NCBI RefSeq assembly: GCF_963675165.1
Contig: NC_087389.1
Coordinates: forward strand, 282,001 to 346,000
Length of the DNA stretch: 64,000 nucleotides
DNA from: Halichondria panicea
Taxonomy: Eukaryota; Porifera; Demospongiae; Suberitida; Halichondriidae
Reading direction: 5' to 3'
The translations under genes were made by a program, and so were the position numbers. Shown here piece after piece: positions 856 through 15,800 of the stretch; the first letter of the stretch is position 1; every line of letters starts with the position of its first letter. The notes beneath the pieces were generated by a model. The model ran no database searches, had not been told where the DNA came from, and saw only the letters and a list, made by a program, of their open reading frames with translations.

Positions 856-3800
856 CTAAGACTCTGCCAGTACTGAGTTGGTATGATTGTTTTTAGTTAT
901 TGATTTGTAGGTTGTCGTGACTTTACTGCGCGCCTTCATCACTTTCTGATAGCAGATCTCAAATGCTTGGGCAATGGTCATCCTCACGTCTTCAGCCGTC
1001 TCCTGTACAGGGCAGAGGGGGGGGGGGGGGGGGGGGGTGAGGTCACACACAGAAACACAATAGGACTTGTATACAAAAAAGCTATAATGTATATGGACGA
1101 ACACCATGTAGCAAGAACTATGTACAATCACACATTAAATGCTTTTTTGTGTGTCAAAAAATATAGGAAAGGGATTGCTACAAATGCCCAGGCCAGCTGT
1201 ATACCTGAGTGTCTGCCATGAAGACGTGAGAGTAGTGCTTCCCAGTCAGTTTGTCCTTGGTGATGTATGCAAATATCCTCCTGTCCTCCAGGTCAGGGGA
1301 GCAGCACGAGATGTCCTTGATAGCGTGGGTGCTCACAACCATCTGTAGGGGTACGGGGGAGCAATATAAATATGTGTCACTAAATTGCATAGTATAAGCC
1401 ACTTAGGAAAATGTAGTTCTATACCTATTACATGATATGCGGACAAAAAACAGCCTGTGGGCTAGCTATTATTTTAACTTTGGTAAACTACTTTTGTAAG
1501 GTCATAACTTCACTAAAAGCAAAACTAAGAGATGCAATCTGTAGTTCTTTAATTACAAGCCCCATCAGATAAAAGTTCTGGGAAGGTCAAAAAACAGCTT
1601 ATTCGGCAAAAGACCATGGCCTTATATTTGTCTGAAAAACGAACTACAGTGGGTAATTTTCGAGGGTCTAAATTTTCGCTGACTGGCTATTTTATTTTCG
1701 AGGATAGCATTTTTTTATTTTCGCGGTTGAAAAATTTTCAGCTTGGTGAAATCCGTAAAATCTGCAAAAATTTGCTACCGTATTACTAGAATATTTTGCG
1801 GGTAAAAAACCTTTGCGAATGAGCCAAATCAGCAGAAATTTTGACCCTTTGTGATCTCGTTCTGGCAAGGATCGTGTGTATTTACTAGTAATAATTTAGG
1901 TTTTGCAGATTTTATTGTTGCGAATTGATCAACCATCGCAAAGTTTGCATATGTTTGATGCTCGCAAAACATTCTAGTAATACGGTATATGGCAAGCTAC
2001 TTTCATGAGGGCATAACTTCACTAAGTAAACACACGCTCATCCCACAATGTTGTACATTCTCCTTGTTATTTTACTCAACCTCTGAATTTCTTGGAGGTA
2101 CCGACGCATGCGCAGATAATGTGTTCCAGGCCGTTTATCTTGTTCCTTGCGGCCTGCTACTGCATTGTTCAATCCTGATAATTGATCTCATATAAAACAG
2201 GTTTTTCATTCATGATGACAATCATAAAAATAGCACGTGTAGATACACGTGCTATTTTTATAATTGTCATCATGATGATAACCCGGTATATAAATCATTA
2301 CGTCTAGCAGAAATCACGCCCTAACAGATGTTGGTGTTATTTAGTGTATGACGACTTCACAGATGCACTAAAACAGTAATAGCTATAATTCTATAGTAGA
2401 GTTATAAGTTTCAAGTGAGAGTGTAATCTATTGTAATCTGATGGCTACTAAAGCAGACCCCGGCCCCACAGGTGTTAAAGTCCATCTTATCAATGTAGGG
2501 CAGGGAGATGCAATATTGCTAGAGGTTATATATGCTGATGGTACATGTAAGTGATTATGGAAATGCACATTTCGTGATGCGTATATACCATTGAACATTG
2601 TCTTAGAGCTTTTGATTATTCAGTGAGGTTTGGAATCCAATTAACTTGTTCAATAATGCAGTATTGTTTTTCATGCAGCACCCAAAAGGTACCTTATCGA
2701 TGGTGGCGTGAAGCGACAAAAAAATAACCTAATAAAGGCCCTGAAGTGTAACGAATGCATACATTCAAAATCTTCAGTAGAAAAAACATCGAAAGATTGT
2801 ATAGAGCTTGACTTGATTGTCAATACTCATCCGGATGCTGACCATTGTGGGGGAATTAATGCACTTTTAGATGGAACGTACAATTTCTGCTGTCCTATCA
2901 TAACCACCAAAGACGCGAAAGTGCAAGTAAGTCCTAAGGACCAAAGCATTGAAAAAGACTATGATACAAGTGCAGAAGGTGATTGCCTTCATTTTTGGTT
3001 TCAGCAACCTGGAAAAATTTACAAAGATTTAAAAGGATCAACCGTAACAATTTCGAAAAAAGACACAAACAAGGATTGTAATGAAGAAAGTATTCTGACA
3101 ACTGTAAAACTACCAGAGAGCAAAATTTACAATTACGATGTGGTGTTGACTGGCGACTCATATGCTGTGACCATCCTTAAAACACTTGGACTCTCACCAA
3201 CGCCTGCAAGTCCACTAAAGATTCCAAGAGTTTGTATTTTTCAAGTGCCTCATCATGGAAGCAAGAGTGCATATGCCAAGAAAAAAGGTCAAGCTGCTAT
3301 CGATTATAAGGAATTCTATATGAAATTTGATGCAGACATCTACTTAATCAGTCATGGCGAACGCTACAAACATCCGCATGAGGAAGTTATCACAGGCATT
3401 CTCTCTGCAGCTGTCGATAAAAAAAAAAAGTGTAACATAGTAGTCACGGCAACATATTTTGACAAACAATTGAAAATCAAAGACAAAAATGTATCCGACA
3501 ACTGGAGTGGTTATGTTACCATCTACCACTTCAAAAAAGACATTTCGTATGTCACCCTACTCGGTACCGAGGGTCTATCCAGTATCGAGGGTCTATCCAG
3601 TATCGAGGGTCTACAGCTGTACACTGGAAAAGAGGTGAGCCTGCGAATTTATTGAGTAATTGTCATTATAATGTATGGTTGTGTTCAAGATCAAACGGTA
3701 TATAGAAAAGGTACATTATATTAGTTAGCTTTGTATTATAATTGTTGTTTGCAATTGTTGACAATGAACCCACACAGTCATTACAAGAGGAGCTTAATGA

Positions 3801-6800
3801 AACAGAAGTCTATCTGATGGCTTGATGAATGATAGCAGCATGTAGATCTATACTATTACAACACTCTAAGACTAATGCCTGATACTTTTTGAACAAAGCA
3901 AAACATGGCGAGAGCCATTAGCACAGCGTAGCTTATATCACTCTCTAATAAAATTATTGCTGATTCAGCAAAGCAAGTTAGAGTGCGCATGTGCAGTAGT
4001 CTATGCCCCTCCTCTTTTTCATTCTGTCCGGATTTGCGAGGTTTTGGACTAAAGGGGTCCGGATTAGTGAGGGTCTACTGTATTGCGCAAGCACATGCGT
4101 AGAATGTCTGATTGTAGCCTGCCTGCCTAGCCATACATGGTCATGTCAACCCACACAGTTTACATTACTACAAGTGTTTGTGACATAGGTAAGTGACCCC
4201 CCACGAGGAAAACCCCTCGTTAGAGGGCGCTCAAGCTCCGAGGTGAGAATGAGAATGTAAAAGTCCTAGAGAGACAATAACGTATTTATATGGTGTGTAT
4301 AGTAGTTGCTTACTCCCCTTCATGTACTCCTGGTTTTAGGTATTTAAGCCCCTCGAATCCGAATTAAATCCGGATCAGATTTTTTTGAGTAGTGGGGATA
4401 GTAAAACGACTACTAATTGCATTTGCGCTGATAGGAAGCTACAGGAACATCCACAAACATGTATAACCCCTCAGAATTGTATTTACTCAAAGCTAAACCG
4501 CTTCTGACACAACCGGATTAGGCCCGTTTACACGAACGCGGTTAGGTTTAATTATACGGTATATAAAATGAGAAGCAGCTGGCAAGATCAAGAATAGCTA
4601 GCTGACTAGCCACTATAGTCAATTATTAGTTAATCCATCCACTTCCTCTAATCTTGTAATGATACTTTACTCCAAAATGTGGGTAGAATCTATTTTAAAA
4701 TTATGATTTATACCAGGAGCATATTATGAGGGGATGGAGCGTCTTACTATGTAGATTCTGTATCGTCTAGCTATGTACAAATTATGCCATATATATGTCA
4801 AACCGCTAAGTGCTGCTAACATTATTCACTATTATTAGATCAAACGCATTATCAGCCAGAGGAGGTCAGACACGCGTGCCTCAATTCAGCAATTAGCCTC
4901 TGCGTTAATTGCAGAGGTGGCTAATCCGCCCATGTTCAATGTTAATTGCAGAGGCTAATTGCTAAATTGAGGCACGCGTGTCGACCTCCTCTGGTTATCA
5001 GCCACACATGTACAGAGAGCACTTAGCACATTACAAACAAGGAAATGTGGCATAGACGATAGTGAATCCGCAATACTATGCATATAGTAAGATGCTCCAT
5101 ACTGTATTGCGCAAGCACATGCGTAGAATGTCTGATTGTAGCCTACCTACCTAGCCATACATGGTCATGTCAAACTACACAGTTTACATTACTACAAGTG
5201 TTTGTGACGTACAGAGATAACAACGTATTTATATGGTGTGTATAGTAAAGTCTATTTGTGTTGAGTTTGACCTTCATAAAGTTGTCATAACTTTGTCATA
5301 CTTCACTGAAATTCAAAGTTTCATATACCATTGGATTCCTTGTTAAAAAGCGCTTCTATCTATATGCTGTAGAGCTGGTAAGCTCCAACCAGCTAAAAGT
5401 TAGCATTTTCCATGTAGAAGTCCCAGGCAAACTTGTCAACCACATAAAACATTAATGAGCCCTTTGTGCTTACTCAGAGCTAAACTAGCTTCTGACACAA
5501 CCGGATTAGGCCCGTTTACACGAACACGGATAGCCAGATTTCAACCGGTAGCTTTTGAAAACGGGGCTTATATTAGAAATCCACTTCCTCTAATCTTTTA
5601 ACGATAACTTTAAAGGGCCTCCAAAATTTGGGTAGAATCAATCTTAAATTATGATATTAACTTATATACATAAAGTTCTAACAACACTTATTATATATAA
5701 ACCAAGCTATATAGCAGACATGCAATAATTTGATATCCTTTTTGGACATTGCAAAAAGACTTAGAATCATATGGCATGTTTAACCAATGATCTGAGACAG
5801 GTGGAATGAAGGCGTTGTGCTATTTCCTTTGTTGTTTCAGAAAGGTGACATTGTTGATAAATCTGGGGAAACACAACACAAACGCGGTACTAAGACTCAC
5901 AAAGCCTCAATTCAGTAAGCCACTACAAGTTAATCAATTCCTGTGGATTTAATGCGCATGCGCGCTCATCCCACATGTTAGTATCCATGATCCAGTGGCA
6001 ACTTACTTCTTTTTCTTGAGGTTCTGGTATACCAGTAAGCCACAATGATATACTAGATAACAATAGATGCATGTACACAAGTCTTTTCTCTGCTTGTTAG
6101 ATATACTGTACTGTCTGTGCTATACTGTTTGGCTACAGGCCATTTAAATAACATGCAGTTGCTTCAGTATCGTTGAAGATTATTCATCAAGCCATCATAG
6201 GTTTCTGCCATTCACTGAGCTCCTCTCTTATAAATGACTGTCTGTAATTCAATTCTGTCAACAATTGCAATCAACAATAATAACATAAACATATAATTAT
6301 ACCTCTTCACTTCTTCTACAATGTAATAGTTTTTGAGCGAAAGCAAAACAACGGTGAGAGGCATTAGCACAGCGCAGTATGCACCACTCGTTGTTGTTGC
6401 AATTGTTGACAATGAACCAACACATTCATTATAGAAGAGAAGCTTAGGAAACAGAAGTCTATCTGATGGCTTAATAAATGATAGCAGTATATAGATCTAT
6501 ACTATTACAACACTCTAAGACTAATGCATGATACTTTTTAAGCAAAGCATAGCACAGTGCAGCTTATATCACTCTCTAATAAAATTATTGCTGATTCAGC
6601 AAAGCAAGTTAGAGTGCATGCGCAGTAGTTTATTCTACTGACAGTCCCTCCTCTTTTTCATTTTGTCCGGATTTGCGAGGTTTCGGACTAAAGGGGTCCG
6701 GATTAGTGAGGGTCTACTGTATTGCGCAAGCACATGCGTAGAATGTCTGATTGTAGCCTGCCTGCCTAACCATACATGGTCATGTCAACCCACACAGTTT

Positions 6801-9800
6801 ACATTACTACAAGCGTTTGTGACATAGGTATTGGACCCTTGGGAGAGGTCAAGCTCAGGAAGACTCGTTAAAGGGTGCTCAAGCTCCAAGGTGAGAATGA
6901 GAATGTAAAAGTCCTAGAGAGACAATAACGTATTTATATGGTGTGTATAGTAGTTGCTTACTCCCCTTCATGTACTCCTGGTTTTAAGTATTTAAGCCCG
7001 GGTCGAATCCGAATTAAATCCGGATCAGATTTTTTTGAGTAGTGGGCATAGTAAAACGACTACTAATTGCATTTGCGCTGATAGGAAGCTACAGGAACAT
7101 CCACAAACATGTACAACCCCTCAGAATTGTATTTACTCAAAGCTAAACCGCTTCTGACACAACCGGATTAGGCCCGTTTACACGAACGCGGTTAGGTTTA
7201 ATTATACGGTATATAAAATGAGAAGCAGCTGGCAAGATCAAGAATAGCTAGCTGACTAGCCACTATAGTCAATTATTAGTTAATCCATCCACTTCCTCTA
7301 ATCTTGTAACAATACTTTACTCCAAAATGTGGGTAGAATCTATTTTAAAATTATGATTTATACCAGGAGCATATTATGAGGGGATGGAGCGTCTTACTAT
7401 GTAGATTCTGTATCGTCTAGCTATGTACAAATTATGCCACGTATATGTCAAACCGCTAAGTGCTGCTAACATTATTCACTATTATTAGATCAAACGCATT
7501 ATCAGCCAGAGGAGGTCAGACACGCGTGCCTCAATTCAGCAATTAGCCTCTGCGTTAATTGCAGAGGTGGCTAATCCGCCCATGTTCAATGTTAATTGCA
7601 GAGGCTAATTGCTAAATTGAGGCACGCGTGTCGACCTCCTCTGGTTATCAGCCACACATGTACAGAGAGCACTTAGCACATTACAAACAAGGAAATGTGG
7701 CATAGACGATAGTGAATCCGCAATACTATGCATATAGTAAGATGCTCCATACTGTATTGCGCAAGCACATGCGTAGAATGTCTGATTGTAGCCTACCTAC
7801 CTAGCCATACATGGTCATGTCAAACTACACAGTTTACATTACTACAAGTGTTTGTGACGTACAGAGATAACAACGTATTTATATGGTGTGTATAGTAAAG
7901 TCTATTTGTGTTGAGTTTGACCTTCATAAAGTTGTCATAACTTTGTCATACTTCACTGAAATTCAAAGTTTCATATACCATTGGATTCCTTGTTAAAAAG
8001 CGCTTCTATCTATATGCTGTAGAGCTGGTAAGCTCCAACCAGCTAAAAGTTAGCATTTTCCATGTAGAAGTCCCAGGCAAACTTGTCAACCACATAAAAC
8101 ATTAATGAGCCCTTTGTGCTTACTCAGAGCTAAACTAGCTTCTGACACAACCGGATTAGGCCCGTTTACACGAACACGGATAGCCAGATTTCAACCGGTA
8201 GCTTTTGAAAACGGGGCTTATATTAGAAATCCACTTCCTCTAATCTTTTAACGATAACTTTAAAGGGCCTCCAAAATTTGGGTAGAATCAATCTTAAATT
8301 ATGATATTAACTTATATACATAAAGTTCTAACAACACTTATTATATATAAACCAAGCTATATAGCAGACATGCAATAATTTGATATCCTTTTTGGACATT
8401 GCAAAAAGACTTAAGGGAATTGTTCATATGGCATGTTTAACCGATAAAGGCGTTGTGTTTGTTTTCTTCAGAAACAAGACAAGCATGATGGAAGAAAATT
8501 CAAACAACGTAAACGTGCAACAGCTATGTAAGCCACTATTTGACATTATAAGGCAATAGTGCATGTACACGGCATGCGTGCGTATAATTATGACCTTATT
8601 AGTTATAGTCTCATACATGACATTCTTTGCAGGCATCCAAATCCTCCAACTCCATCCAGAAAGGTTAGTTTAGCCGTAGTAATTTTCTAATAGCGGCCAC
8701 CTCGCTATATAATGCAACTGTACTTAATGCGGATACACGTTAGTGCCGTCTGATGCCAGTTAGCAGATACATAGATCTATAGTCAATTATTAGTCAATCC
8801 ATCCACTTCCTCTAATCTTGTAACGATAACTTTAAAGAGCCTCCAAAATTTGGGTAGAATCAATCTTAAATTATGATATTAACTTATATACATAAAGTTC
8901 TAACAACACTTATTATATATAAACCAAGCTATATAGCAGACATGCAATAATTTGATATCCTTTTTGGACATTGCAAAAAGACTTAGAATCATATGGCATG
9001 TTTAACCAATGATCTGAGACAGGTGGAATGAAGGCGTTGTGCTATTTCCTTTGTTGTTTCAGAAAGGTGACATTGTTGATAAATCTGGGGAAACACAACA
9101 CAAACGCGGTACTAAGACTCACAAAGCCTCAATTCAGTAAGCCACTACAAGTTAATCAATTCCTGTGGATTTAATGCGCATGCGCGCTCATCCCACATGT
9201 TAGTATCCATGATCCAGTGGCAACTTACTTCTTTTTCTTGAGGTTCTGGTATACCAGTAAGCCACAATGATATACTAGATAACAATAGATGCATGTACAC
9301 AAGTCTTTTCTCTGCTTGTTAGATATACTGTACTGTCTGTGCTATACTGTTTGGCTACAGGCCATTTAAATAACATGCAGTTGCTTCAGTATCGTTGAAG
9401 ATTATTCATCAAGCCATCATAGGTTTCTGCCATTCACTGAGCTCCTCTCTTATAAATGACTGTCTGTAATTCAATTCTGTCAACAATTGCAATCAACAAT
9501 AATAACATAAACATATAATTATACCTCTTCACTTCTTCTACAATGTAATAGTTTTTGAGCGAAAGCAAAACAACGGTGAGAGGCATTAGCACAGCGCAGT
9601 ATGCACCACTCGTTGTTGTTGCAATTGTTGACAATGAACCAACACATTCATTATAGAAGAGAAGCTTAGGAAACAGAAGTCTATCTGATGGCTTAATAAA
9701 TGATAGCAGTATATAGATCTATACTATTACAACACTCTAAGACTAATGCATGATACTTTTTAAGCAAAGCATAGCACAGTGCAGCTTATATCACTCTCTA

Positions 9801-12800
9801 ATAAAATTATTGCTGATTCAGCAAAGCAAGTTAGAGTGCATGCGCAGTAGTTTATTCTACTGACAGTCCCTCCTCTTTTTCATTTTGTCCGGATTTGCGA
9901 GGTTTCGGACTAAAGGGGTCCGGATTAGTGAGGGTCTACTGTATTGCGCAAGCACATGCGTAGAATGTCTGATTGTAGCCTGCCTGCCTAACCATACATG
10001 GTCATGTCAACCCACACAGTTTACATTACTACAAGCGTTTGTGACATAGGTATTGGACCCTTGGGAGAGGTCAAGCTCAGGAAGACTCGTTAAAGGGCGC
10101 TCAAGCTCCAAGGTGAGAATGAGAATGTAAAAGTCCTAGAGAGACAATAACGTATTTATATGGTGTGTATAGTAGTTGCTTACTCCCCTTCATGTACTCC
10201 TGGTTTTAAGTATTTAAGCCCGGGTCGAATCCGAATTAAATCCGGATCAGATTTTTTTGAGTAGTGGGCATAGTAAAACGACTACTAATTGCATTTGCGC
10301 TGATAGGAAGCTACAGGAACATCCACAAACATGTACAACCCCTCAGAATTGTATTTACTCAAAGCTAAACCGCTTCTGACACAACCGGATTAGGCCCGTT
10401 TACACGAACGCGGTTAGGTTTAATTATACGGTATATAAAATGAGAAGCAGCTGGCAAGATCAAGAATAGCTAGCTGACTAGCCACTATAGTCAATTATTA
10501 GTTAATCCATCCACTTCCTCTAATCTTGTAACAATACTTTACTCCAAAATGTGGGTAGAATCTATTTTAAAATTATGATTTATACCAGGAGCATATTATG
10601 AGGGGATGGAGCGTCTTACTATGTAGATTCTGTATCGTCTAGCTATGTACAAATTATGCCACGTATATGTCAAACCGCTAAGTGCTGCTAACATTATTCA
10701 CTATTATTAGATCAAACGCATTATCAGCCAGAGGAGGTCCGACTCGCGTGCCTCAATTCAGCAATTAGCCTCTGCGTTAATTGCAGAGGCGGCTAATCCG
10801 CCCACGCTCAATGTTAATTGCAGAGGCTAATTGCTAAATTGAGGCACGCGTGTCGGACCTCCTTTGGTTATCAGCCACACATGTACAGAGAGCACTTAGC
10901 ACATTACAAACAAGGAAGTGTGGCATAGACGATAGTGAATCCGCAATACTATGCATACTGTATTGCGCAAGCACATGCGTAGAATGTCTGATTGTAGCCT
11001 GCCTGCCTAACCATACATGGTCATGTCAACCCACACAGTTTACATTACTACAAGTGTTTGTGACGTACAGAGATAACAACGTATTTATATGGTGTGTATA
11101 GTAAAGTCTATTTGTGTTGAGTTTGACCTTCATAAAGTTGTCATAACTTTGTCATACTTCACTGAAATTCAAAGTTTCATATACCATTGGATTCCTTGTT
11201 AAAAAGCGCTTCTATCTATATGCTGTAGAGCTGGTAAGTTCCAACCAGCTAAAAGTTAGCATTTTCCATGTAGAAGTCCCAGGCAAACTTGTCAACCACA
11301 TAAAACATAAATGAGCCCTTTGTGCTTACTCAGAGCTAAACCAGCTTCTGACACAACCGGATTAGGCCCGTTTACACAAACACGGATAGCCAGATTTCAA
11401 CCTGTGGCTTATATTAGAAATCCACTTCCTCTAATCTTCTAACGATAATTTTAAAGAGCCTCCAAAATTTGGGTAGAATCAATCTTAAATTATGATACTA
11501 ACTTATATACATAAAGTTCTAACAATACTAAACCAAGCTATATAGCAGACATGCAATAATTTGATATCCTTTTTGGACATTGCAAAAAGACTTAAGGGAA
11601 TTGTTCATATGGCATGTTTAACCAATGAAGGCGTTGTGTTTGTTTTCTTCAGAAACAAGACAAGCGTCAGCGTATTGATGATGATAAAACTGGGGAAAGA
11701 AAACCCAAACAACGTAAACATGCAACAGCTAAGTAAGCCACTATTTGACATTATAAGGCAATAGTGCATGTACACGGCATGCGTGCGTATAATTATGACC
11801 TTATTAGTTATAGTCTCATACATGACATTCTTTGCACAGGGAATTTGAACGAGATGTTTCGATACGGCATTCAAATCCTCCAACTCCATCCAGAAAGGTT
11901 AGTTTAGCCGTAGTAATTTTCTAATAGCGGCCACCTCGCTATATAATGTAACTGTACTTAATGCGGATACACGTTAGTGCCGTCTGATGCCAGTTAGCAG
12001 ATACATAGATCTATAGTCAATTATTAGTCAATCCATCCACTTCCTCTAATCTTGTAATGATAACTTTAAAGAGCCTCCAAAATTTGGGTAGAATCAATCT
12101 TAAATTATGATACTAACTTATATACATAAAGTTCTAACAATACTAATTATATATACACCAAGCTATATAGCAGACATGCAATGTCCTTTTTGGACATTGC
12201 GAAAAGACTTAGAAGAATTGTTGTCCTTTTTGGACATTGCGAAAAGACTTAGAAGAATTGTTTCATATGGCATGATTGATTCTTCAATAATTATGATATA
12301 ATTATACTGCTACACCTACACAATATTGCGTCTGCAATACATAATTAATAACACGATTCATCTAGCTAGCTAGCTCAGTATCAATGGTATTTTTAAATTG
12401 GAATTTTACAACATTTTATGTACTACCATGCATGTACAAACTACCAACTACCAACTGCCATTGCATGCATGACTAGCAAGTATAAACTCTTAAGTACCGC
12501 ATAGCAGGTAATTTTCGTTGATGTAAATTATCGTAAGAACTGTCCAATTAAATATTTCGTATTTTAAATATTTGTACAGCTCAGGATAGTGACGTTGATT
12601 GTAATGCAGTAGAATAATTTCGTAGTTTAAATTTTCGTATAACCCGCTATACGGTATCATGTTTGAACTAAGTCTCAACTGTGAACTATATGAGTGCACC
12701 TTGCGTGTGTTAATTAATGCACTCATGCAGCCAGCCACCACGGCTCAGCTCTGGGTATATTCACTTTCTATATACTAGGACCTTTGCTATAGGATGTTTG

Positions 12801-15800
12801 TACAATCCAACAATGAGGTTGAGCATTCGTTATATGTATACATCTGTGTGAGTAATGTTGCGATTCCATGCAAAGCGTATCATATTTAGGGAACGCTCAA
12901 CCCTCAACGCTCTTCCTGTGCTTATATGGGGATATGCGTGATTGTACTATTATCTATTCAATACAGCACACTACTGTAAATACCCTATTATCAAGCAATG
13001 GCTTGGGGTTCGAAGACGTAAATACAGAGTGCAGATATGACCATTTATATGAGATTTCAAAGCAGCTGGAAAACTGGGAGCAGGTAGTAATGCGGCTGGG
13101 ATTAACACAAGATGATATTGATCTCATCAAACGTAACACATCAAGTATGAGGAGGAGGAGATTGGACAGTCTTAATAAATGGACATCTATGACTGGAACA
13201 GCTACGTATCGAGTTCTACTACAAGCTTTGTTGGGCTGTGGCTACAATGACCAAGCAACACAAGTGTGCTCACTACTCAAGAAATCACTACTGTATCAAG
13301 AGAGAAGTCTGATGGCTACAGTTGATCTTTAAGGATAGAAGCATAGATCTATGATATTTAGTGTTATACCGTATAGCGGGTAAATTTAGCGAATGAGGCA
13401 ATTAAACTACTATTAACGATTTCTAATTTGACGATTATGCTGCACAAAATTATTGATCTCGTGCGATATACCAGGTCTGAGTTCAAGCTAACGCGGTTTT
13501 TAATTTTGTGATTCCCAAATTTATCCACTATACGGTACATGACTACTCCTGATATGACATTGTGCATTTCCTGTAATTGAATAATAGGGTGGATCTGCAA
13601 AGAGGTCAAAGTTTACAATGGCTACATGCTTCTGGCAGCCTATAGAAGCTGTTAGTTGTACTCGCATTACCATCACAGCAGTTACAGCTGGAACACACGC
13701 ACACGCACACGCACACGCACACACACGCGCACACACACACACACACACACACACAACTAAGAGGTGCAATCTGTAGCTGTTTGATCTAAGCTATCACACT
13801 TAAATCAAAGTTTCGGGAGGGACAAAAAACAGCCTATCTCGACAAAAGACCATGAGAGCCTTGAAATTTTATTTGGCAAGCTACTTTCGTGAGGTTGTAA
13901 CTTCACTAAAAAGCAAACTAAGAGATGCAATCTGTAGCTGTTGACAAGCCCCTATCACTAGCCTATCCCCTATGCCTCACTTTAGATTGGCCGTCCACAA
14001 ATTTGACTCCTTTCCACGAGATGGCCAGAATGATCTCTGGCTTCTTGAGCGTGCTCTCTGTGGTATTCTTGAGTCGTAGACACGCCTCCTCTGCTGACTG
14101 GTTCCCATGTAACTGTTTGATGATCACACTCCCAAGATACTGCATAACAAAAAGAGACACCATGTCAATATACAAGCGTAAATCTAGAATACATACGTAC
14201 AGGCTTAGTATCACGAGGCTGCCCACCTTAACTTTGTACTGGATGCAGCCACTGGTGAGTGCCTCATGAGAGTGTTTCCATACGACTGGTGAGAGCCTGG
14301 CCGTGCGAATGCCCTCACCCACTGCCTGAGCTAGCGAGGGGGAGCACACCACCTCAGACTTGACAGACAGTGGGAGTGTCGTGTGCGTAGTCGTTGTGGT
14401 TGGTGGTACACTACCAGAAGTAGGGAGAGTCTGGGTCTGTGACTGTGCAAGAGACAATGATTAGTGGCAATCCTTGCAGGCTACAACGTATATGATGATT
14501 ATCTCAATAGAAGTTACACTGTATACACTCACACTTCTCCACTCTGGGTGGGCAGACCTCAACTCAGAGATGCCGTACTGGAGTCTCTTACGATATCCAA
14601 GCTCCTCAACACCAATCACCTGGGCAATCAAACAGTATCAATCAAAATCAGGAATTAACCTCCTACACAGACTCACGGCAGCTAGCTCCACTTCCCAGAA
14701 CCCAGACAGTCTCTCCAAAGAGTAGTCGCTGAACTTTGCCTCCAAGTGACTCAGTTCCAACAGCTCCAGCCATTGGGCGACGGATGTCACATGATCAAGA
14801 TGGTGAGGTGGTGGAAGGAGCGAGACTGCTGCCATCAGGTTGCTATGAGGAAGGGGAACATCAACAAAGTTAAAGGTATAAAACAATGAAAGGAAAAACG
14901 ATGGAATAATAACTATGACCAGTCATACATTAATAGTTATAGAGAGTAGACGTACAACTGGTCGTCAGGTGAGGTTATGCCGATGTCCTCGAGATCATCC
15001 ATGACCAGGATGTTCCCGCTAAGGAAGAGGAGACTGTCATAGCCATTGGTCTGCAGTGCACCCTGACAAGCCTCCAGATCATAGAGTAAGAGCCATGAGG
15101 CCAGTGTCTGGGTGACGGGGGGAGGGGACCCAGGTTGTTGTGGTACACTAATGTCCCTCAGGAGTGTGTCAATCTGCAGAGGGGGCAATAAATGCTCAAC
15201 ATGATGGTACATGCAAGGAACAGCTACATGTGTAACACATCATCGTATAGCGGGTAATTTTTGTATGAACTACCTAATTAAATATTTTGTAGTGCAATAT
15301 TCGTACAGCTCAGGATAGCTACGTTGAACGTATTGCGGTAGAATAATTTCGTACTTTTAATTATGAAAAATATACGAAAATTTCCACCGTACGAAAATAA
15401 CCCGCTATACATGTATTTAGGGTATACATTGTACTTAATCTGTATTACCTGACTCCATTCCATTTCAACCCTCTCGTTATCCCACACTGTCTCTGTTCTG
15501 TTCCGAAACTTTTCTCCGTCTGTGGGAGGTGAAGACCCCACAGTACTGGCTGACATCACCAGCCCTGCAAACGGGTCACTAGATGTACTGATTCGTTTCA
15601 AACTAGCAGAATCAGACTTAGTCGAAGCTCGATCCGATTCTGGTTCTGGAACAGGAGAAGTGCAGTTTGTAGGAGAGGAATTGCTGCTGCTGTTGGTAGA
15701 TTTTTTACCTATGTTTATAGGTTCGTAGACCATTTTCCTATGTCGAAGGGAGGAGCGTTTCTCGTCATTGCTGACTGTTTTTGTTGTCTCGGGAGCTGTT

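What the first reader, a model, noticed from the sequence alone, without database searches (positions are those of the whole stretch)
2441..13332. MBL-fold hydrolase joined to a Death domain in an animal gene
Seen: a ComEC-like MBL domain with intact HxDxDH, D and HH sites ends at a strong donor (GAG/GTGAGC, phase 0). Downstream, a Death-domain exon has a phase-0 acceptor, and two kinds of small exon between them (0 to 2, then 2 to 0) close the frame exactly. Known: Death domains scaffold innate-immune and apoptotic complexes; ComEC-type MBL domains act on nucleic acids or phosphodiesters in bacteria. Inference: a signalling protein that couples a hydrolase, perhaps acting on nucleic acid or cyclic nucleotide, to Death-fold assembly. 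I know of no described animal protein of this design.
Basis: partly seen in the sequence, partly recalled or inferred. Interest (0 to 1): 0.92.

Follow-up and report, generated by a model that had tools for sequence, protein, structure and literature searches.

The report
Sponge MBL hydrolase–Death domain gene
In the breadcrumb sponge genome, an enzyme domain of the DNA-cutting type that bacteria use to take up DNA and fight viruses sits next to, and is probably spliced to, a Death domain used by animals for immune and cell-death signalling, although no transcript has yet been seen.

Summary
Observation confirmed. The window comes from Halichondria panicea. Exon 1 (2441-2546) and exon 2 (2679-3634) encode a ComEC-like MBL domain with a complete metal site. 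Its phase-0 donor at 3635, small 0-to-2 and 2-to-0 exons, and a phase-0 Death exon (12967-13332) are there, and the eight splice forms I built stay in frame. New anatomy: the unit lies on the opposite strand inside one 12.6-kb intron of an ANKS1-like gene; 15 distinct + strand frames between the two domains hold no Pfam domain. Two RefSeq paralogs use the same phase-0 donor, over introns of about 2.5 kb, to attach another C-terminal module (OTU-like). So the donor is a real module slot, and Death is the best candidate module. Against it: no transcript, no named protein found for this locus, small-exon counts near chance, Death dN/dS near 1, and only 1 of 15 MBL loci near a listed Death match. 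Catalytic residues match the ComEC nuclease; profiles also point to anti-phage MBL nucleases (Avs1a), but no family cut-off is met. Probable new domain combination in a lineage known for shuffling Death domains; fusion about 0.6, Death-scaffolded nuclease about 0.45.

The parts
2441..2546 (+). Exon 1: MATKADPGPTGVKVHLINVGQGDAILLEVIYADGT, first strands of the MBL domain (NVGQGD motif); donor GTAAGT
   Evidence: same exon split in RefSeq paralog P0005/L032
2679..3634 (+). Exon 2: rest of the MBL domain, HxDxDH...D...HHGS...HPH; phase-0 donor GAG|GTGAGC at 3635
3635..3655 (+). In-frame read-through past the donor to a stop (EVSLRIY*), the alternative end if the intron is kept
   Evidence: relatives P0001 and P0002 end the same way
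5841..5914 (+). Candidate linker exon A1, 0-to-2, basic (KGDIVDKSGETQHKRGTKTHKASI)
8472..8527 (+). Candidate linker exon A2, 0-to-2, basic
8633..8663 (+). Candidate linker exon B1, 2-to-0 (HPNPPTPSRK)
9063..9136 (+). Candidate linker exon A3, identical to A1 (tandem copy)
11653..11732 (+). Candidate linker exon A4, 0-to-2, diverged copy of A2 with a 24-nt length difference
11840..11897 (+). Candidate linker exon B2, 2-to-0 (EFERDVSIRHSNPPTPSRK), 27 nt longer than B1
12967..13332 (+). Death exon with stop codon; phase-0 acceptor
4007..12334 (.). Tandem duplications (spacings about 2650 and 3222) that fill most of the putative intron and carry the linker exons
1343..13980 (-). Single intron of an antisense ANKS1-like gene (PTB exons at 13981-14139, 1205-1342 and 856-1002) in which the whole MBL-Death unit lies

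Best explanation
A nested sponge gene encodes an N-terminal ComEC-type MBL hydrolase, a short basic linker of variable exon make-up, and a C-terminal Death domain. SHOWN: the exons, phases and intact catalytic residues; homologous donors joined to another C-terminal module in two RefSeq paralogs; the location inside one antisense intron. INFERRED: that MBL and Death are spliced together; that the MBL part is a metal-dependent nuclease (or other phosphodiesterase); and that homotypic Death-Death contacts recruit or cluster it on an immune or cell-death platform, so that it cuts nucleic acid near, or only in, the assembled complex. This is the logic of bacterial defence systems that couple an MBL nuclease to an oligomerising sensor.
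Confidence: 0.45

Rival explanations
1. Two unlinked units: the MBL transcript ends by intron retention at 3655 or uses unrecognised 3' exons, and the Death exon is a separate small gene (start codon at 12868 in the same open frame, 154 aa).
For: The Death frame is open upstream to 12856, and relative P0062 keeps the whole 154-residue frame at 97%; no joint protein in the database; small-exon counts near chance.
Against: The 12868 start has a weak context, T at -3 and C at +4 (consensus from memory; exon 1's own start, C at -3 and G at +4, is not strong either). Similarity to the C8 paralogs begins at about 12976, just inside the exon, apart from short 25-33-base stretches upstream. Two paralogs are spliced at the homologous donor.
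Confidence: 0.27
2. The fusion is real, but the MBL part is not a nuclease: it hydrolyses another phosphodiester, a cyclic nucleotide or a phosphorylcholine-type substrate, or has become a binding domain.
Against: Sequence profile prefers ComEC over Pce by more than 30 orders of magnitude (2e-44 against 6e-10), although the profile held bacterial ComEC-like rows; the residues tested in ComEC are kept.
Confidence: 0.18
3. A decaying copy: an MBL gene that moved away from the C4 cluster into an intron, with a captured Death exon, now not expressed.
For: No named protein found for it; Death dN/dS near 1; several C4 copies carry stops (L037, L045, L047), so decay happens in this family.
Against: MBL dN/dS 0.36-0.70 against five paralogs by two methods (a sixth, L043, could not be computed); active-site residues kept; Death exon open, with an in-frame 9-nt gap, when simulated neutral drift at 0.12-0.16 changes per base leaves 14-8% of exons stop-free (26% at 0.08, 3% at 0.24); open in a second assembly.
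Confidence: 0.1

Closest known systems
[quoted passage not shown]
   Same: Fold, NVGQGD strand, HxDxDH, D, HHGS and HP motifs, short first loop (78 residues; 72-85 in the 9 presumed prokaryotic rows of A1)
   Different: No OB fold or membrane channel recognised; 20.6 bits against a family cut-off of 190; sponge rows fall apart from ComEC rows in a rough tree
Anti-phage MBL pro-nucleases: Avs1a (AVAST type 1), HamM, CanC of canu (PMC12799240)
   Same: Stand-alone ComEC-like MBL; Avs1a is the best NCBIfam family for 6 of 8 sponge or sponge-like members scanned singly, the window's among them
   Different: 39.6 bits against a cut-off of 420; no long gating insertions; no partner protease recognised; in bacteria the nuclease is a separate gene, here a Death domain is (probably) fused
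H. panicea MBL-OTU proteins LOC135334495 and LOC135334483 (RefSeq; P0005, P0080)
   Same: Exon 1, MBL exon, phase-0 donor
   Different: C-terminal module is OTU-like (weak Pfam match), with Ser where OTU proteases carry Cys (motif from memory); no Death domain
Death genes on C8 of the same genome
   Same: Death exon, 53-62% identical in the 14 nearest (13 on C8, one on C1)
   Different: No MBL seen; a weak upstream Death-like frame and, in some, a downstream Roc-like GTPase region (both below Pfam cut-offs)
Amphimedon proteins with 1-3 Death-like domains, TRADD-N and variable effectors (PMC8195603)
   Same: Sponge-specific shuffling of Death domains with enzymes (caspase, PNPase, HD phosphodiesterase)
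   Different: TRADD-N present, Death domains N-terminal; 'lactamase' does not occur in that paper's main text (supplements not searched)

Membership tests
Death domain (PF00531) | Pfam gathering score | tested here: met
   37.3 bits against 22.6; profile of 19 sequences finds the RIPK1 Death domain, E 7e-6
Death domain (PF00531) | Six-helix fold and homotypic binding | not tested
MBL superfamily (PF00753) | Pfam gathering score for the window's exon 2 frame | tested here: not met
   20.8 against 22.7 bits; paralog P0005 reaches 22.9
MBL superfamily (PF00753) | Alpha-beta/beta-alpha fold with HxHxDH-type metal site | tested here: met
ComEC/Rec2 (TIGR00361) | Whole-family score | tested here: not met
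   20.6 against 190 bits
ComEC/Rec2 (TIGR00361) | Metal-binding and catalytic residues of the nuclease domain | tested here: met
   mapping to H598, D600, D602, H603, D700, H725 and S728 read by me from the alignment
Avs1a-type anti-phage MBL (NF041809) | Family score | tested here: not met
   39.6 against 420 bits
Avs1a-type anti-phage MBL (NF041809) | Long gating insertions | tested here: not met
   78 residues after HxDxDH to the next motif, as in ComEC-like rows; Avs1a-like L097 has 208 residues between HxDxDH and HHGS, two ComEC 119 and 122, the window 135 (positions 55 and 191)
H. panicea MBL-OTU family | OTU-like C-terminal exon | tested here: not met
   tblastn of P0005 and P0080 on the 64-kb window (E up to 1) finds the MBL part only

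The most novel reading that the evidence does not exclude
An animal has wired a ComEC/anti-phage-type MBL nuclease into Death-domain signalling: Death assembly concentrates the enzyme on an immune or apoptotic platform, where it destroys foreign or own DNA. This would be a metazoan counterpart of bacterial systems in which oligomerising sensors or caspases switch on MBL nucleases, built by plugging modules (Death, OTU-like) into one phase-0 slot behind the MBL exon.
Probability: 0.2. Interest if true: 0.85.

Novelty: new variant of a known kind. Interest (0 to 1): 0.52.

Why it matters
If the fusion is real, it links two immune vocabularies: the MBL nucleases that bacteria repeatedly recruit into anti-phage systems and the Death domains with which animals build inflammatory and cell-death complexes. 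It would offer a directly testable animal case of a nuclease recruited by Death-domain assembly. Even without the Death fusion, I saw no description of the expanded sponge MBL family, with swappable C-terminal modules behind one exon, in the results of the open-paper searches that I made.

Full report
WHERE IT IS. The window is C13:282001-346000 of a 131-Mb animal genome held as G000. RefSeq protein P0005 (uncharacterized protein LOC135334495 isoform X2, Halichondria panicea) matches locus L032 of this genome at 100% over 324 residues, and its contig length, 7,813,905, equals that of C4. I take the genome to be H. panicea.

WHAT IS THERE. On the + strand, exon 1 (2441-2546) and exon 2 (2679-3634) encode an MBL domain. 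Exon 2 ends at GAG|GTGAGC in phase 0; reading on gives a stop at 3655. A Death exon with a stop codon lies at 12967-13332 (PF00531, E 3e-9). Between them are four small exons of 0-to-2 type and two of 2-to-0 type, in tandem duplications with spacings of about 2650 and 3222 bases. All eight splice forms that I built close in frame. A 331-base query around one linker pair matches only this window in the genome (4 matches; that search skips very common words). The two 0-to-2 exon kinds of each repeat unit share phase, so only one of them can precede a 2-to-0 exon; this fits mutually exclusive exons, which is inference.

HOW MUCH IS CHANCE. A simple filter for acceptor, donor, length and frame finds 4 and 4 candidates in the region, 1 and 2 on its other strand, and means of 1.7 and 1.2 (maxima 4 and 3) in 18 overlapping control chunks that themselves hold genes. 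Frame closure is therefore weak evidence. Stronger is how the linker exons changed since the 3.2-kb duplication: 8 of 37 substitutions fall into the 56 aligned bases of one exon (P 1.4e-7, gap placement ambiguous), and the two length changes in linker exons are 24 and net 27 nt, whereas the other four indels are 1, 17, 15 and 10 nt.

NESTED GENE. The minus strand carries a gene with SH3-like and SAM-like exons above 14.9 kb (both below Pfam's cut-offs). Its PTB domain is split: exon 14139-13981, then 1342-1205 and 1002-856. Joined, the pieces give PF00640 over positions 1-138 of 140, E 3.8e-21, against 0.022 and 3.8e-12 for the halves alone, and the best solved relative is the ANKS1B PTB domain, E 1.9e-36; I did not look for ankyrin repeats, so 'ANKS1-like' rests on PTB and SAM. 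The intron between, 13980-1343, is 12,638 bases and holds the complete MBL-Death unit on the other strand. Between the two domains, 15 distinct + strand frames of 50 aa or more gave no Pfam match over cut-off (best E 0.016).

THE FAMILY. Searching the genome with exon 2 gives 22 matches, which I group into 15 loci: this one, 13 in C4:5.33-5.59 Mb and one at C4:3.90 Mb. At least three of them (L037, L045, L047) carry several stops. Two RefSeq proteins show the family's gene plan. P0005 and P0080 have the same exon 1, then the MBL exon, then a phase-0 donor (AAG|GTACAC) spliced over about 2.5 kb to a phase-0 exon (CAG|GTGCCA) with an OTU-like domain (Pfam E 0.002-0.015, below cut-off). P0042 (LOC135334512) matches L038 to the end of its MBL exon and continues with sequence found lower in the same locus; that exon ends in GAAGAG|GTGAGC. 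The position behind the MBL exon is therefore a used module slot. No OTU part is found in the window.

THE DEATH EXON. Its 14 nearest paralogs (53-62% identity) are on C8 (13) and C1 (1). In the five C8 loci scanned, an upstream frame matches Death weakly (E 8e-4 to 0.02, below cut-off); some have a downstream GTPase-like region (L056, Roc E 0.006, below cut-off). The genome has at least 148 Death matches (150 of 503 candidates scored). DNA similarity to those paralogs begins at about 12976, the exon's edge, apart from 25-33-base stretches upstream. dN/dS is 0.98 against 12 paralogous exons, 0.66 among those: fast, relaxed or diversifying. Simulated neutral drift leaves 14% (at 0.12 changes per base) or 8% (at 0.16) of such exons stop-free, and the one internal length change shared against most paralogs is in frame, so I think that it is still coding.

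HOW IT MOST LIKELY WORKS. Fusion by splicing (about 0.6): supported by the module slot, the shared intron, the lack of another recognised partner for Death, and the shared contig length; not shown by any read. Enzyme active on nucleic acid or another phosphodiester: likely from residues, substrate unknown. Death domain as recruiter to an immune or cell-death platform: established for Death domains generally, inferred here. Overall 0.45.

KNOWN OR NEW. Sponges are known for shuffling Death-like domains with enzymes: in Amphimedon up to half of 357 TRADD-N proteins have unique architectures, with caspase, PNPase or HD phosphodiesterase effectors (PMC8195603, section 10 read), and Sacsin-like proteins fused to DEATH domains are reported there too (PMC3710099, passage). 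Metallo-beta-lactamase is listed among the commonest domains of putatively transferred genes in Amphimedon (PMC4784904, passage). I saw no MBL-Death protein in the results (open PMC only). So this is a new combination of known kinds, more interesting for the MBL module slot than for Death shuffling itself.

AGAINST. No named RefSeq protein for this locus appears, whose candidates are bounded in length (about 175-556, 85-270 and 287-912 residues; only 7999 candidates were scored), although other H. panicea models do; a Death-only model could hide in P0062's cluster. Only 1 of 15 MBL loci is near a listed Death match, the next nearest being 92.8 kb away.

Noticed in passing
856-1342, 13981-14139 (minus strand) and exons to about 18 kb: Antisense ANKS1-like gene (SH3-like, SAM-like, PTB) whose PTB domain is split by the 12.6-kb intron that hosts the finding.
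   Followed up: yes
L077:2663-3223; P0005, P0080, P0021: OTU-like domain fused to sponge MBL proteins reads NSFF where active OTU proteases have NC (motif recalled): perhaps a dead deubiquitinase used as a binding module.
   Followed up: partly
C4:5.33-5.59 Mb (L032-L052): Cluster of about 13 MBL loci, several with stops, some near-identical (L035/L036): looks like a birth-and-death family.
   Followed up: partly
4856-4994, 7506-7644, 10728-10867: Long inverted repeats (AGAGGAGGTC...GACCTCCTCT type) inside the tandem units, MITE-like by eye.
   Followed up: no
12847-12879: A stretch of 29-33 nt 96-97% identical to DNA just upstream of Death exons in L061, L062 and L063 (25 nt in L060), of 17 loci compared; more conserved than the exon itself.
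   Followed up: partly
8472-8527 against 11653-11732: Linker exon diverged far faster than its flanks after a recent duplication (8 of 56 bases against 29 of 3124), frame kept.
   Followed up: yes
P0081, P0083: Other unnamed MBL relatives end in CXC (TCR, PF03638) cysteine-rich repeats, below Pfam's cut-off: perhaps a further C-terminal module.
   Followed up: no
L138:1097-7617: Bacterial MBL relative lies beside what read as type I restriction-modification genes, with a P-loop ATPase and a small membrane protein (by eye, no family search): a defence-island-like setting.
   Followed up: no
P0003, P0011, P0001: The loop between the TGD and HHGS motifs varies from 20 to 87 residues among the 47 rows of A1, right beside the active site.
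   Followed up: partly
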